Source: Pseudomonas sp. WS 5079
Lineage (GTDB): Bacteria; Pseudomonadota; Gammaproteobacteria; Pseudomonadales; Pseudomonadaceae
Direction of reading: 5' to 3'
DNA: 64,000 nucleotides
Assembly (NCBI RefSeq): GCF_012985465.1
Contig: NZ_JAAQWN010000002.1
Location: forward strand, 682,001-746,000
Shown here piece by piece: positions 43,515-49,428 of the stretch (the first letter of the stretch is position 1; each line of letters begins with the position of its first letter). A model generated the notes under the pieces. It searched no databases and was not told the origin of the DNA. It saw nothing but the letters and a program-made list of their open reading frames with translations. Made by a program: the position numbers and the translations under genes.

Positions 43515-43548
43515 AAAAAGGCGCCCCTGACCGGGCGCCTTTTTTCTA
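43515..43548. terminator. Bidirectional terminator between mscL and fprB
   Basis: AAAAAGGCGCCC/GGGCGCCTTTTTT stem with loop CTGACC serves mscL rightward. The complementary A-run gives a T-run leftward, where the fprB stop overlaps its outer edge. Confidence 0.9.
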
Positions 43549-44322
43549 CCAGTAGTTTTCTACCGCCACCTGCCCGGGCCGACGCGCCAGGCTCAGTTGC
43601 ATATCACGCTGCTTGAGCAGTTGCCGGGTGTCATCGATCATCTGCGGATTGCCGCAAATCATCACCCGCGAATGCAAAGGCGTCAGCGCTACGCCCGCCG
43701 CACGCTCCAGCTCGCCATTTTCGATCAGGGTCGTGATCCGCCCATTCAATGCACCCGGCCGCTGCTCACGGGTCACGATAGGCAGGTAGGTGAGTTTATG
43801 GGCGTGTTCGCTCAAGTACTCGCGCTCACCCAATTCCTTGATCAGGGTCTGGTAGGCCAGCTCCCGAGCTTCCCTGGCGCTGTAGACCAGGATGATCCGC
43901 TCAAATTTTTCCCAGGCTTCAAAGTCCTGCAGGATCGACAGAAATGGCGCGATCCCCGTGCCGGTGCCCAGCAGCCAAAGGTCACGACCATCGACAAAAC
44001 GATTCAGGGTCAAGAAACCGGTGGCCTGGCGCTCCACCAGCAACTCGTCGCCCACCCGCAGGCGACTCAGCTCACTGGTGAACTCACCACCGGGCACCAC
44101 AATAGAGAAAAACTCCAGGAACTCATCAAAGGGCGACGACACCACCGAATAGGCACGCCACACCAGGCTGCCATCGGGTTTGGTCACGCCCAGGCGAACA
44201 AACTGCCCGGCGGTGAAACGGAACCCCGGGTCCCGGGTAGTACGCAGGGTAAACAGGCTGGGGGTCAACGACTGCACATCGATCAGGGTCTGGCGTGTGA
44301 ATTTTTCCGCACTGGCCGTCAT
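43546..44322 (-). CDS. fprB: Ferredoxin-NADP reductase FprB
   Basis: A 258-residue bacterial FNR that moves electrons between NADPH and ferredoxin or flavodoxin. The FAD-binding motif is RAYSVVSSP, the pyrophosphate loop is PGGEFTSEL, and the NADP-site motif is LLGTGTGIAPFLSIL. The end VENYW and start MTASAEKFTRQTL fit the FprB subfamily rather than FprA. The ATG at 44322 is used; the frame extends upstream to 44439 with non-conserved residues. Confidence 0.92.
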   Translation of the reverse strand: MTASAEKFTRQTLIDVQSLTPSLFTLRTTRDPGFRFTAGQFVRLGVTKPDGSLVWRAYSVVSSPFDEFLEFFSIVVPGGEFTSELSRLRVGDELLVERQATGFLTLNRFVDGRDLWLLGTGTGIAPFLSILQDFEAWEKFERIILVYSAREARELAYQTLIKELGEREYLSEHAHKLTYLPIVTREQRPGALNGRITTLIENGELERAAGVALTPLHSRVMICGNPQMIDDTRQLLKQRDMQLSLARRPGQVAVENYW

Positions 44323-44735
44323 GGGGGGCTCCGGTCTACAGGTAACCCCTAGTGTCCCCCAAAGCGACGCCTGGAAACACCGTTGGTTTGTAGTGACATC
44401 CTGCGTGCCTCCACTGACCAATACAGAAAAGATGGCCATCTGCCTTCAATTCAAACCATTTGGCTATTAAGTCCTACTCATAACCCCTACATGAAAATTC
44501 ATAAACTGTGTCGCAACCCTGCCCTAAGCAAATGAATGACAAAGAAATTCACTCACATCATCAGCCCCCCCGCCCGCGCGCCCAGGACCATGGGTATCAA
44601 TCAGTTCTACTAAAAAACGCAACGCTAAGTGCGAAAATTCCCATCTGGGTTTTACATGCTGTCCTACACTCGATTCGGTAACGCTAAGGGGACCGCGTTG
44701 CGAACAATCAGTGTGCGACTCATGGAGATTTACCA
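44323..44735. promoter_or_regulatory. fprB-luxR divergent spacer with repeats
   Basis: These 413 bases have no convincing gene. Visible structure: palindrome AGATGGCCATCT at 44430-44441; direct repeat AACGCTAAG at 44621-44629 and 44680-44688; and inverted repeat CGCAACGC (44618-44625) / GCGTTGCG (44695-44702). The last two bracket the DNA just upstream of the LuxR-type gene and could be autoregulatory. I find no canonical lux box. Confidence 0.5.
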
Positions 44736-45446
44736 ATGGTCAACTGGCGAAACACACGTCTACCCAAACTAGAAGGTGAGGATGAGGTGACGACTATGTT
44801 CGAGGCTGCTCTGAACATTACCTATGAGCTGGGCTTTGAATATTGCGGTTTTATGATGGGCTCCAATGCGGTTTATCAGCCATTCAAGAACATCCACCTC
44901 AATAATTATCCAAGTGAATGGAACACTCTCTACAAAACAGAACATTACTTCGATATGGACCCGCTGGTCAGCCACTGCAAACGCGATGTACTGCCCATCG
45001 TCTGGGAAGAAAAAACCTACTCTGCAGTGCCGGACATGTGGGTTCACTTGCAAGCCCAGGGTCTCAATTTTGGCTGGGCGCAGTCGGTGCATGACTTCCG
45101 TGGCTTTTTCAGCATGATCAACCTGGGACGACGCCAGGAACCGGTGCAAGCCCAGGAACTGTATGAGAAAGCCGGCCAGGTCTTGTGGATCTGCCATGCC
45201 TTGCATACCGTCGCGGCCCAGGCCTATGCCAAGGAGCCGGCCTGCCAGTGCCCCACCAAGCTCACCAGTCGCGAGACCGAAATCCTGCAATGGTCGGCAC
45301 TGGGCAAGACAGCTGCCGATATCGCGACAATTCTCTGCCTGTCCGAGCGCACTGTCGGTTTTCATATCAGCAGTGCGATGCGCAAGCTGGGGGTGAGCAA
45401 TAAGATTGCCGCGGTGATCACGGCAGTCAAACACGGCCTTTTTTGA
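44736..45446 (+). CDS. LuxR-type quorum-sensing regulator (orphan/solo)
   Basis: A 236-residue regulator with an autoinducer-binding domain (about 15-165) and a C-terminal LuxR helix-turn-helix (LTSRETEILQWSALGKTAAD...TVGFHISSAMRKLGV). All six residues usual in AHL receptors are present: W62, Y66, D75, P76, W90 and G113. The plant-signal subgroup (OryR/PsoR) replaces the first two, so an AHL or close analogue is the more likely ligand. No luxI homologue is in the window, hence solo. Upstream DNA has repeats. rlmG follows on the same strand. Confidence 0.92.
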   Translation: MVNWRNTRLPKLEGEDEVTTMFEAALNITYELGFEYCGFMMGSNAVYQPFKNIHLNNYPSEWNTLYKTEHYFDMDPLVSHCKRDVLPIVWEEKTYSAVPDMWVHLQAQGLNFGWAQSVHDFRGFFSMINLGRRQEPVQAQELYEKAGQVLWICHALHTVAAQAYAKEPACQCPTKLTSRETEILQWSALGKTAADIATILCLSERTVGFHISSAMRKLGVSNKIAAVITAVKHGLF

Positions 45447-45621: not shown

Positions 45622-46746
45622 ATGCCCCTGCTCGATAGCCCCTTCGCCCAACTCGACCTGATCCGCCAGCCCGAGCAGCAAAACGAACCGCTGCAAGCCT
45701 TCGATGCGGCCGACGAGTATCTGCTTGCCTACCTGGCCGAGCAGCAACCGGCCAGCAGCACCCGCGTACTGGTGCTCAATGACAGTTTTGGGGCATTGGC
45801 GGCCAGCCTTGAGGGGCATGTGCATGTCACCAGCAGCGGCGATTCATTCCTCGGCGCCCAGGCCCTGCAAAAAAACCTGATGCGCAATGGCAAGGCCTTC
45901 GATGCCCTTTCGTTCGTGCCTGCCAGCCAGGTGCCCAGCGGGCCCTTCGATCGGGTACTGATCCGGGTACCAAAAACCCTGGCGCTGCTCGAAGAACAAT
46001 TGATCCGCCTGCAGGACCAATTGGCGCCAGGTGCCGAAGTGATCGCGGGGGCCATGGTCAAGCACCTGCCCCGCGCCGCCGGTGAACTGCTGGAGCGTTA
46101 CATCGGGCCGATGCACGCGTCGCTGGCGGTGAAAAAGGCCAGGTTGCTGATCGCCACCCTGGCTGATCGCCCTCGCGTCGTATCGCCCTACCCCACGCGT
46201 TATCGCCTGGACGCGCCGGCCATCGAGCTACTCAACCACGCCAATGTGTTCTGCCGCGAAGGCCTGGATATCGGCACCCGTGCCTTCCTGCCCCATCTGC
46301 CGCACAACCTGGGGAATGCCCGCGTGGCTGACCTGGGTTGCGGCAACGGCGTGCTGGCGATTGCCAGCGCCCTGCACAACCCCGAGGCGCAGTACACCTT
46401 GGTGGACGAGTCCTATATGGCCGTACAGTCGGCCGCCGAAAACTGGCGCGCGGCCCTGGGTGAGCGGCCCGTGATGATTCGCCCCGGCGACGGCCTGGCG
46501 GACCAGGAGCCGCAATCGTTGGACGTGGTGCTATGCAACCCGCCGTTCCACCAGCAGCAGGTGGTGGGGGATTTCCTTGCATGGCGCATGTTCCAGCAGG
46601 CCCGCGAAGCGCTGGTAGTCGGCGGCGCGTTGTACATCGTCGGCAACCGCCACCTGGGTTATCACAGCAAGCTGGCGCGGCTGTTCCGTGGTGTGGAGCA
46701 GGTGGCGGCGACACCAAAGTTCGTGATTCTCAAGGCCCGCAAATAA
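45622..46746 (+). CDS. rlmG: 23S rRNA (guanine-N2) methyltransferase RlmG
   Basis: A 374-residue SAM-dependent methyltransferase expected to modify G1835 of 23S rRNA. The N-terminal half is the degenerate methyltransferase domain (PLQAFDAADEYLLAYL, LIRVPKTLALLEEQL). The C-terminal half has motif I VADLGCGNGVLAIAS and catalytic motif NPPFHQQQ. Length and both domains match E. coli RlmG; the related RsmC is shorter and lacks this N-terminus. Confidence over RsmC is good. Confidence 0.93.
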   Translation: MPLLDSPFAQLDLIRQPEQQNEPLQAFDAADEYLLAYLAEQQPASSTRVLVLNDSFGALAASLEGHVHVTSSGDSFLGAQALQKNLMRNGKAFDALSFVPASQVPSGPFDRVLIRVPKTLALLEEQLIRLQDQLAPGAEVIAGAMVKHLPRAAGELLERYIGPMHASLAVKKARLLIATLADRPRVVSPYPTRYRLDAPAIELLNHANVFCREGLDIGTRAFLPHLPHNLGNARVADLGCGNGVLAIASALHNPEAQYTLVDESYMAVQSAAENWRAALGERPVMIRPGDGLADQEPQSLDVVLCNPPFHQQQVVGDFLAWRMFQQAREALVVGGALYIVGNRHLGYHSKLARLFRGVEQVAATPKFVILKARK

Positions 46747-46977: not shown

Positions 46978-47985
46978 CTAGTGATAGCCATCTTCATGGG
47001 TCACCTTGCCGCGGAACACGTAGTAGCTCCAGAAGGTGTAGCCCAGGATGAACGGGATGATGAACAGCGTACCCACCAGCATGAAGCCCTGGCTTTGCGG
47101 CGGCGCGGCGGCATCCCAGATCGACACCGACGGCGGGATGATGTTCGGCCACAGGCTGATGCCCAGGCCGCTGTAGCCGAGGAAGATCAACACCAGCGTC
47201 AGCAGGAACGGCGCGTAATGGGCATTGCGGGCCACGGCACGCACCAGCGCATACATGGTCACCAGCACCAGGATCGGCACCGGCAGGAACCAGAACAGGT
47301 TCGGCAGGGTGAACCAGCGCGAGGCGATGTCCGGGTGGGCCAGGGGCGTCCAGATGCTGACGATGCCAATCACCGCCAACACGACGAACGCCAGGGGTCG
47401 CGCCAGGTTGTGCATCTGCTCTTGCAGCTTGCCTTCGGTCTTCATGATCAGCCAGGTGCAGCCCAGCAGGGCATAGGCCACGATCAAGGCCACGCCGCAA
47501 AACAGGGCAAACGGCGAGAACCAGTCCAATGAGCCGCCGGCGAACTGGCGGTCAACCACCGGAATGCCTTCAATGAATGCCCCCAGCGCCACGCCCTGGA
47601 AGAAGGTCGCCGCCAGCGAGCCGCCGATAAACGCCTTGTCCCACAAGTGGCGCTTGTCATCCTTGGCCTTGAAGCGGAACTCAAAGGCCACGCCACGGAA
47701 GATCAGGCCGATCAGCATCAGGATCAGCGGCAGGTACAGCGCCGAGAGCACCACCGAGTAGGCCAATGGGAAGGCGCCAAACAATGCCGCGCCCCCCAGC
47801 ACCAGCCAGGTTTCGTTGCCGTCCCACACCGGGGCGACGGTATTCATCATCACGTCACGGTCAGTCTTGCCCGGGATAAACGGGAAGAGAATGCCGATCC
47901 CCAGGTCAAAGCCATCCATGACCACGTACATCATGATGCCGAAGATGATGATCACGGCCCAGATCAGCGGAAGATCAATACCCAT
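46978..47985 (-). CDS. cioB: Cyanide-insensitive terminal oxidase subunit II
   Basis: A 335-residue CydB-family subunit with about eight to nine TM helices. The N-terminal signature is YVVMDGFDLGIGILFPF and VAPVWDGNETWLVLGGAALFGAFP (here given as VAPVWDGNETWLVLGG). It pairs with CioA to oxidise quinol with oxygen. cioA stops three bases upstream, so translation is coupled. Confidence 0.95.
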   Translation of the reverse strand: MGIDLPLIWAVIIIFGIMMYVVMDGFDLGIGILFPFIPGKTDRDVMMNTVAPVWDGNETWLVLGGAALFGAFPLAYSVVLSALYLPLILMLIGLIFRGVAFEFRFKAKDDKRHLWDKAFIGGSLAATFFQGVALGAFIEGIPVVDRQFAGGSLDWFSPFALFCGVALIVAYALLGCTWLIMKTEGKLQEQMHNLARPLAFVVLAVIGIVSIWTPLAHPDIASRWFTLPNLFWFLPVPILVLVTMYALVRAVARNAHYAPFLLTLVLIFLGYSGLGISLWPNIIPPSVSIWDAAAPPQSQGFMLVGTLFIIPFILGYTFWSYYVFRGKVTHEDGYH

Positions 47986-47988
47986 GAC

Positions 47989-49428
47989 TCAATTCCCCTT
48001 GTTCAGAGTGTCGCCGTGATCGGCGTCGCCGCTGTCATCGGCTGCCGACAATGGACGCGCCGGGGTACGTTGCTGCCCGGGGCCGCCGTGGGCCGGTTCG
48101 GTGCTGTCGTGGGTGACCGGGCCTTTGCGCACCAGGCGCATCATGTAGCCAAGGCCTGCGCCGAACAGGGCGAAGTACACCACCACAAACAGCGCCAGGG
48201 TGATGCTCATCTGCACCACGCTGTGGTTGGAAGAGGCGTCCGCCGTGCGCATCAAGCCGTAGACCACCCAGGGCTGGCGCCCGATTTCGGTGGTGAACCA
48301 GCCGGCCAGGATCGCAATCAACCCCGACGGGCCCATCCATAGCGCCAGGTACAGGAACGGTTTGTTGGTGTACAGCCTGTCGCCCTTGCGCAGCCAGAGG
48401 CTGAACAGGCCGGTGAAGATCATCAGCATGCCCAGGCCGACCATGACCCGGAACGACCAGAACACGATGGTCGAGTTGGCACGATCCTCAGGTGGGAACT
48501 CCTTGAGGGCCGGCACTTGCTTGTCCAGGGAGTGGGTGAGGATCAGGCTGCCCAGGTAGGGGATTTCCACCTTGTACTTGGTGCGCTCTTCCTTCATGTC
48601 CGGCCAGCCGAACAGGATCAGCGGGGTCGGCTCATTGCCGATGTTTTCCCAGTGGCCTTCAATCGCCGCAATTTTCGCCGGCTGGTGCTTGAGGGTGTTG
48701 AGGCCATGGAAGTCACCGATCACCGCCTGGATCGGCGCGACGATCAGGGCCATCCACATCGCCATCGACAGCATGGTGCGGATCGCCGGGTTGTCCTTGC
48801 CCCGCAGCAGATGCCAGGCCGCCGACGATCCGACAAAAAACGCGGTGGCGACAAACGCCGCCGTGGCCATGTGCGCCAGGCGATAGGGGAACGAAGGGTT
48901 GAAGATCACGGCCAGCCAATCGGTGGGGATCACCCGGCCGTCGATGATTTCAAAGCCTTGTGGCGTCTGCATCCAGCTGTTGGAGGCGAGGATCCAGAAG
49001 GTCGAGATCAGCGTACCGACGGCCACCATCACCGTGGCAAAGAAGTGCAGCTTGCGCCCGACCTTGTTCCAGCCAAACAGCATCACCCCAAGGAAGCCCG
49101 CTTCGAGGAAGAACGCGGTGAGCACTTCATAGGTCAGCAACGGCCCCGTGACAGAGCCGGCGAAGTCCGAGAAGCGGCTCCAGTTGGTACCGAACTGATA
49201 GGCCATGACCAGGCCCGAGACCACCCCCATGCCGAAGTTGACGGCAAAGATCTTCGACCAGAAATGGTAGAGGTCACGGTAGGTATCGTTGTGGGTCTTG
49301 AGCCACAGGCCCTCCAGTACCGCGAGGTAACTGGCCAGGCCAATGGTGATGGCCGGGAACAGGATATGGAACGAGATGGTGAATGCGAATTGAATTCGGG
49401 CGAGATCTAGCGCCTCCAAACCGAACAT
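47989..49428 (-). CDS. cioA: Cyanide-insensitive terminal oxidase subunit I
   Basis: A 479-residue CydA-family subunit. Haem ligands: His in FTISFHILFPAITIG (b595), His in YRLAHMATAAF (b558), and Met near VVFWSFRVMVGLGM (b558 partner). GRQPWVVYGLMRTADA is the conserved C-terminal motif. The Q-loop between helices 6 and 7 is short, as in the CIO subclass rather than E. coli bd-I. CIO supports respiration in the presence of cyanide. Regulatory DNA upstream has an Anr box. Confidence 0.95.
   Translation of the reverse strand: MFGLEALDLARIQFAFTISFHILFPAITIGLASYLAVLEGLWLKTHNDTYRDLYHFWSKIFAVNFGMGVVSGLVMAYQFGTNWSRFSDFAGSVTGPLLTYEVLTAFFLEAGFLGVMLFGWNKVGRKLHFFATVMVAVGTLISTFWILASNSWMQTPQGFEIIDGRVIPTDWLAVIFNPSFPYRLAHMATAAFVATAFFVGSSAAWHLLRGKDNPAIRTMLSMAMWMALIVAPIQAVIGDFHGLNTLKHQPAKIAAIEGHWENIGNEPTPLILFGWPDMKEERTKYKVEIPYLGSLILTHSLDKQVPALKEFPPEDRANSTIVFWSFRVMVGLGMLMIFTGLFSLWLRKGDRLYTNKPFLYLALWMGPSGLIAILAGWFTTEIGRQPWVVYGLMRTADASSNHSVVQMSITLALFVVVYFALFGAGLGYMMRLVRKGPVTHDSTEPAHGGPGQQRTPARPLSAADDSGDADHGDTLNKGN

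What the first reader, a model, noticed from the sequence alone, without database searches (positions are those of the whole stretch)
44323..45446. LuxR solo with intact AHL-pocket residues and a repeat-rich leader
All six conserved ligand-pocket residues are present, yet no synthase gene lies within 20 kb. The 413-base upstream spacer has a direct repeat (AACGCTAAG twice) nested with an inverted repeat (CGCAACGC/GCGTTGCG) just before the gene, but no canonical lux box. It may listen to AHLs from neighbours and recognise a non-standard operator.
Basis: partly seen in the sequence, partly recalled or inferred. Interest (0 to 1): 0.5.

Follow-up and report, generated by a model that had tools for sequence, protein, structure and literature searches.

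The report
Ordinary PpoR-type LuxR solo
This is one more copy of a known signal-receptor gene (PpoR) that sits between the same two genes in many Pseudomonas species; the repeats in front of it look accidental, and this bacterium carries two genes of its own for making that class of signal.

Summary
The gene (44736-45446, 236 aa) is a real LuxR-type receptor with all six AHL-pocket residues. It is a known kind: PpoR, or 'subgroup A' LuxR solos, defined by fpr and rlmG neighbours; that order holds in 66 of 66 relatives fetched (62 distinct, chosen by similarity). Conserved instead are a promoter-like CCTACA[A/C]T box (61 of 63 loci) and an fpr-side block. 'No synthase within 20 kb' is right but misleading: the genome holds two luxI genes, each beside its own luxR, one pair Las-like, one Rhl-like, so the solo may read home-made AHLs as P. 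aeruginosa QscR does. Both synthases come and go in close relatives while the solo stays. The protein diverges fast but under purifying selection (dN/dS 0.065-0.13), with nearly invariant pocket anchors. Best reading: a relaxed-specificity AHL receptor for own and foreign AHLs, targets unknown, ordinary for the genus. Response to AHLs could not be tested here.

The parts
44736..45446 (+). ppoR-type luxR solo, 236 aa: autoinducer-binding domain (aa 20-158) and GerE HTH (aa 175-229)
   Evidence: W62 Y66 D75 P76 W90 G113 and HTH E180 L184 G190
43546..44322 (-). fpr-type ferredoxin-NADP reductase, divergent neighbour that defines the locus
   Evidence: PF00970/PF00175; NF008178 228.7 bits, under its cut-off of 390; beside the solo in 66 of 66 loci
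45622..46746 (+). rlmG-type 23S rRNA methyltransferase, downstream neighbour that defines the locus
   Evidence: PF05175; NF011577 287 bits, under its cut-off of 468; 66 of 66 loci (in L051 only residues 84-374 were matched)
44663..44670 (+). CCTACACT, a -10-like promoter box; CCTACA[A/C]T found in 61 of 63 loci at 53 to 82 bases before the start codon
   Evidence: the role as -10 is inference; a sigma-70 consensus scan of the spacer found nothing
44724..44727 (+). GGAG, probable ribosome-binding site of ppoR
   Evidence: sequence; conserved in the alignments
44345..44400 (.). conserved fpr-side block, probably fpr promoter or regulatory site
   Evidence: 33 close loci, then 63 loci; its TAGTGTC core is exact in 45 of 63; function inferred from position
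44621..44629 (+).
44680..44688 (+).
44618..44625 (+). CGCAACGC, left arm of the inverted repeat; judged coincidental
44695..44702 (+). GCGTTGCG, right arm of the inverted repeat; judged coincidental

Best explanation
Shown: by sequence and position the gene belongs with PpoR and the subgroup A LuxR solos, in a pseudomonad whose closest named relatives at this locus are P. gessardii and P. brenneri, and whose genome also holds a Las-like and an Rhl-like luxI/luxR pair. Inferred: the protein is a dimeric transcription factor that binds AHLs with relaxed chain-length specificity; it is expressed from the conserved box at 44663 and adjusts a dispersed set of genes in response to AHLs made by the cell's own two synthases and by neighbours. 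Its targets are not identified here. The AACGCTAAG and CGCAACGC/GCGTTGCG repeats are coincidental and not an operator. The single confidence figure blends the identity part (about 0.95) with the mechanism part (about 0.5).
For: Domains; best solved-structure match QscR, 135 bits, ahead of LasR 108. fpr-luxR-rlmG order in 66 of 66 fetched loci, 62 distinct, matching the published context of subgroup A and of PpoR. Six pocket residues each kept in 56-61 of 61 proteins; on a tree of 60, anchors average 0.57 changes, pocket-lining sites 8.15, other ligand-domain sites 12.5, one-sided permutation p 0.008. dN/dS 0.065-0.13 against five close relatives. Two luxI in the genome, each beside a luxR: one synthase nearest LasI, 1.2e-68, with a LasR-like partner, 1.8e-70; the other nearest AHL synthase 3p2f, 9.9e-35, with an RhlR-like partner, 2.4e-104. 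PpoR binds 3-oxo-C6-HSL (abstract); PplR binds C6, C8, 3-oxo-C10 and 3-oxo-C12-HSL (passages).
Against: No ligand or target test on this protein. Ppu16R of the same subgroup gave no detectable response of its own or flanking promoters with or without AHLs, and AHLs did not change its solubility. P. putida KT2440 PpoR is reported to act independently of AHLs (cited in PMC11543582; the original paper was not seen). At the position of LasR S129 this protein has N, found in 2 of 61 proteins including itself (T in 32, S in 25), and at LasR A105 it has L (8 of 61 including itself), so its ligand range may differ. Five of 61 proteins have A at the G113 position. In 2 of 62 relatives the gene has an in-frame stop, so it is not indispensable. 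Dimerisation and use of the box at 44663 rest on family knowledge and conservation alone.
Confidence: 0.75

Rival explanations
1. Eavesdropper only: the solo responds to exogenous AHLs from neighbours and is insulated from the cell's own signals by specificity.
For: The solo is kept in relatives with no luxI found: 41 of the 60 genomes fetched, including G052 and G260. PpoR is listed as class B, exogenous AHLs.
Against: This genome holds two AHL synthase genes, and the studied relative PplR binds a broad AHL range.
Confidence: 0.3
2. Ligand-independent or non-AHL regulator: the pocket is a leftover or binds another small molecule, and activity follows growth phase.
For: Ppu16R negative results; KT2440 PpoR reported as AHL-independent (cited); strict growth-phase expression of ppoR; unusual N129.
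Against: Anchors are nearly invariant, and pocket-lining sites change less than the rest of the domain, so binding of some ligand seems to be under selection.
Confidence: 0.25
3. One reading: the nested direct and inverted repeat is a non-standard self-regulatory site.
For: Both repeats together in the last 130 bases occurred in 0 of 1000 shuffles, for a stretch chosen after the fact.
Against: Common in shuffles of the full spacer and absent in 66 of 66 relatives; copy 2 lies after the conserved -10-like box, so probably inside the transcript; P. putida ppoR does not regulate itself.
Confidence: 0.04

Closest known systems
PpoR of Pseudomonas putida (PMC2703642) and PplR of P. plecoglossicida (PMC11543582)
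   Same: Length (PpoR 235 aa), two domains, fpr/rlmG neighbours, unpaired; PplR's pocket residues W62 Y66 D75 W90 G113 carry the same numbers as here
   Different: No AHLs were detected from PplR's host, while this genome holds two luxI genes; N at the LasR-S129 position here; PpoR's and PplR's own sequences were not aligned with this protein
Subgroup A LuxR solos of fluorescent pseudomonads, Ppu16R (Bez et al. 2021, PMC8546723)
   Same: Defined by the same two flanking genes; pocket like that of paired AHL receptors; low sequence conservation within the subgroup (31-52% for A and G)
   Different: Nothing found that separates it; this strain also has complete luxI/R systems, a combination which that paper found in 8.9% of its genomes
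QscR of Pseudomonas aeruginosa
   Same: Best solved-structure match; third LuxR receptor beside a LasR/I-like and an RhlR/I-like pair
   Different: QscR sits beside phenazine genes, not between fpr and rlmG; orthology not tested by a tree
SdiA
   Same: AHL-pocket LuxR solo; best NCBIfam score (91.8 bits)
   Different: Far under the family's cut-off of 350 bits; other gene context

Membership tests
LuxR solo | Autoinducer-binding domain plus GerE HTH in one protein | tested here: met
   PF03472 6.4e-25 and PF00196 6.3e-17
LuxR solo | No cognate luxI next to it | tested here: met
   Both luxI genes found in the genome lie on other contigs, each beside its own luxR
LuxR solo | Stricter sense used by some: no luxI in the genome at all | tested here: not met
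   Two luxI over the PF00765 cut-off
PpoR / subgroup A | Flanked by ferredoxin-NADP reductase and 23S rRNA methyltransferase | tested here: met
   definition
PpoR / subgroup A | AHL-type pocket with W57, Y61, D70, W85, G113 (TraR numbers) | tested here: met
PpoR / subgroup A | Binds AHLs | not testable with these tools
   Reported for PpoR and PplR, inconclusive for Ppu16R
QscR | Same gene context (beside phenazine genes) | tested here: not met
   Context is fpr/rlmG; QscR context
QscR-like role | Responds to AHLs made by the cell's own synthases | not testable with these tools
   Synthase genes present; response untested
SdiA | NCBIfam NF007561 cut-off 350 bits | tested here: not met
   91.8 bits
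Plant-responsive (PAB, subgroup C) solos | W57 replaced by M, Y61 by W; pip gene beside it | tested here: not met
   W62 and Y66 kept; neighbours are fpr and rlmG; definition

The most novel reading that the evidence does not exclude
In this group of fluorescent pseudomonads a fixed-locus receptor (PpoR) works as a third, integrating receptor for two patchily distributed Las-like and Rhl-like circuits: a P. aeruginosa-like layout (Las, Rhl, QscR-like) in which the third receptor sits at a different locus from qscR. Its local changes at the LasR S129 and A105 positions (N/N/S/R/C/S and L/V/A/V/A/A across six close species) would retune it to whichever AHLs each species makes.
Probability: 0.2. 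Interest if true: 0.45.

Novelty: already known. Interest (0 to 1): 0.15.

Why it matters
As a single gene it adds one more PpoR-type solo. The wider setting could be useful: close relatives at the same locus carry both, one or neither of the two synthases, a natural series for asking whether a LuxR solo's specificity follows the signals its own cell makes. It also shows that a luxI search limited to a 20 kb neighbourhood can mislead.

Tried and rejected
Repeat operator: rejected on chance and non-conservation. Canonical lux box in the spacer: none; the one symmetric CT...AG dyad that my scan printed (N8-14, at least 70% symmetric) is at 44336 on the fpr side, 12 of 17 symmetric, and two CT-N16-AG matches that end in the repeats are not symmetric (4 and 2 of 10). 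Sigma-70 promoter and terminator consensus in the spacer: none. Leader RNA structure: 44677-44750 folds about as well as shuffles (z -1.06); no Rfam family at gathering threshold in the window. 'Diversifying pocket' idea (pocket-lining sites evolve fastest): rejected genus-wide, they are slower than the other ligand-domain sites (using a LasR contact list recalled from memory), and not enriched among sites variable in six close species (6 of 20 pocket sites, 46 of 132 over all non-anchor sites, p 0.80). Receptor swapped at the locus: not supported; PpoR distances track Fpr (r 0.88) and RlmG (r 0.84) over 60 genomes. That is after dropping L051; with it in, PpoR-RlmG was 0.15 and Fpr-RlmG 0.19, because my reading of its rlmG was set from a partial match and was out of frame. 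NCBIfam gave no model above its cut-off for the solo.

Rows dropped: L006, L008, L009, L010 as repeats of genomes fetched again as L044, L048, L049, L050 (judged by equal contig lengths and spacings); L052 and L060 from protein counts (in-frame stops); L051 from the tree and the final distance test. keep all 66 loci. Those 60 are 41 of the 44 best-scoring relatives plus 19 lower-scoring ones picked by me, not a random draw, so 66 of 66 synteny is not a genus-wide rate. Of 298 genus genomes, 94 by my count by eye (list typed into) had a best hit weaker than 1e-30 or none, so the gene is probably not universal; synteny was not checked there.

Full report
What is there. The window holds an ORF at 44736-45446 (236 aa) with an autoinducer-binding domain and a GerE helix-turn-helix. 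It lies between a divergent ferredoxin-NADP reductase gene (43546-44322) and an rlmG-type methyltransferase gene (45622-46746), with mscL on the fpr side and, beyond rlmG, an oxidase-like gene pair at 46978-49428 (the oxidase naming is from the look of the sequence and was not searched). This is the context published for P. putida PpoR (passages of PMC10134790) and for 'subgroup A' LuxR solos, described as occurring in almost all fluorescent Pseudomonas species analysed (parts 1 and 2 of 3 of the Results of PMC8546723).

The repeats. In 1000 dinucleotide shuffles of the 413-base spacer, 26% had a direct repeat at least as long and 37.5% an inverted repeat at least as long within 150 bases. The test that settles it for me is conservation: 0 of 66 relatives' leaders carry AACGCTAAG or both arms, and the alignment of 13 of them with the window shows the sequence changed even at 83-87% protein identity.

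What is conserved. Two features of the intergenic region stand out: a box CCTACA[A/C]T at 44663, found in 61 of 63 loci 53-82 bases before the start codon, and a block next to fpr (about 44345-44400). The first looks like a -10 element; from memory, CTACACT resembles the stationary-phase sigma -10 pattern. A plain sigma-70 scan does not report it, and P. putida ppoR expression rises with growth but did not depend on rpoS, psrA or gacA (one section read). If it is the promoter, the second AACGCTAAG copy lies in the transcript.

The synthase question. The genome (6.33 Mb, 35 contigs) has three autoinducer-binding receptors and two luxI genes. Each luxI has a luxR directly upstream. One pair is Las-like (synthase to LasI 1.2e-68; receptor to LasR 1.8e-70). 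The other receptor is Rhl-like (2.4e-104); its synthase is nearest AHL synthase 3p2f (9.9e-35), and a glycosyltransferase-like reading frame lies upstream (all models under their cut-offs; rhlB by my reading, not tested). So the solo is unpaired but not in a cell without AHL synthase genes. Among seven relatives tested, G032 has both synthases, G143 only the Las-like, G295, G262 and G218 only the Rhl-like, G052 and G260 neither (identities 94-96% and 89-96%). In the genus draw 61 of 298 genomes have a luxI, as do 19 of the 60 genomes whose solo I fetched. Comparing positions for those 19, no luxI lies near the solo: it is on another contig (distance then unknown) or more than 400 kb away on the same one.

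The protein. Its mean protein distance is about 3.6 times that of its neighbours (0.45 against 0.13 and 0.12 over 60 genomes), but it is under purifying selection (dN/dS 0.065-0.13 against five relatives; its synonymous distances are also higher than those of its neighbours). The six pocket residues are each kept in 56 to 61 of 61 proteins. Pocket-lining sites change less than other ligand-domain sites (8.15 against 12.5 changes, p 0.008). This suggests that a ligand is still bound and argues against free drift. At the LasR S129 position this protein has N, and five close relatives have N, S, R, C and S; this may shift chain or oxo preference, untested.

How it most likely works. By analogy with PpoR, which binds 3-oxo-C6-HSL (abstract), and PplR, which binds C6 to C12 AHLs (passages), it is a broad-range AHL receptor that could read both own signals and those of neighbours. 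Its targets are unknown. In P. putida an over-expression microarray from one biological sample moved 62 genes, among them PP4650, a cyanide-insensitive oxidase subunit, down threefold (one section read). Against this, Ppu16R gave no reporter response, and the KT2440 protein is reported to act without AHLs (cited; original not seen).

Verdict. A confirmed but ordinary LuxR solo of a published subgroup; the operator idea fails and the 'neighbours only' idea is weakened by two home synthase genes. P. fluorescens PF08 with RhlI/R is already in print (passages). Two searches, for this solo in P. gessardii relatives (12 of 545 papers listed) and for PpoR with an inverted repeat (8 of 16 listed), were seen as listings only, so no claim of absence from print is made.

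Noticed in passing
G000 contig C1:103820-104326 (L001) and contig C11:902957-903460 (L002): Two luxR-luxI pairs in the same genome, one Las-like and one with an Rhl-like receptor downstream of a glycosyltransferase-like frame: with the solo, a P. aeruginosa-like set of three receptors.
   Followed up: partly
L052 (G186) and L060 (G090): The orthologous solo gene has an in-frame stop in these two relatives, although the flanking genes are kept: sporadic loss of the solo.
   Followed up: no
window 44345-44400: Block next to fpr, the longest conserved stretch of the spacer across 63 loci; probably the fpr promoter or a regulator site.
   Followed up: partly
window 46978-49428: Oxidase-like gene pair just beyond rlmG; a P. 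putida cyanide-insensitive oxidase subunit gene, PP4650, near ppoR (PP_4647) by its number, went down threefold on PpoR over-expression, so this pair is a candidate target.
   Followed up: no
window protein residues 105 and 129 (45048-45050 and 45120-45122): At the LasR A105 and S129 positions six close species show L/V/A/V/A/A and N/N/S/R/C/S, although most pocket sites are stable.
   Followed up: partly
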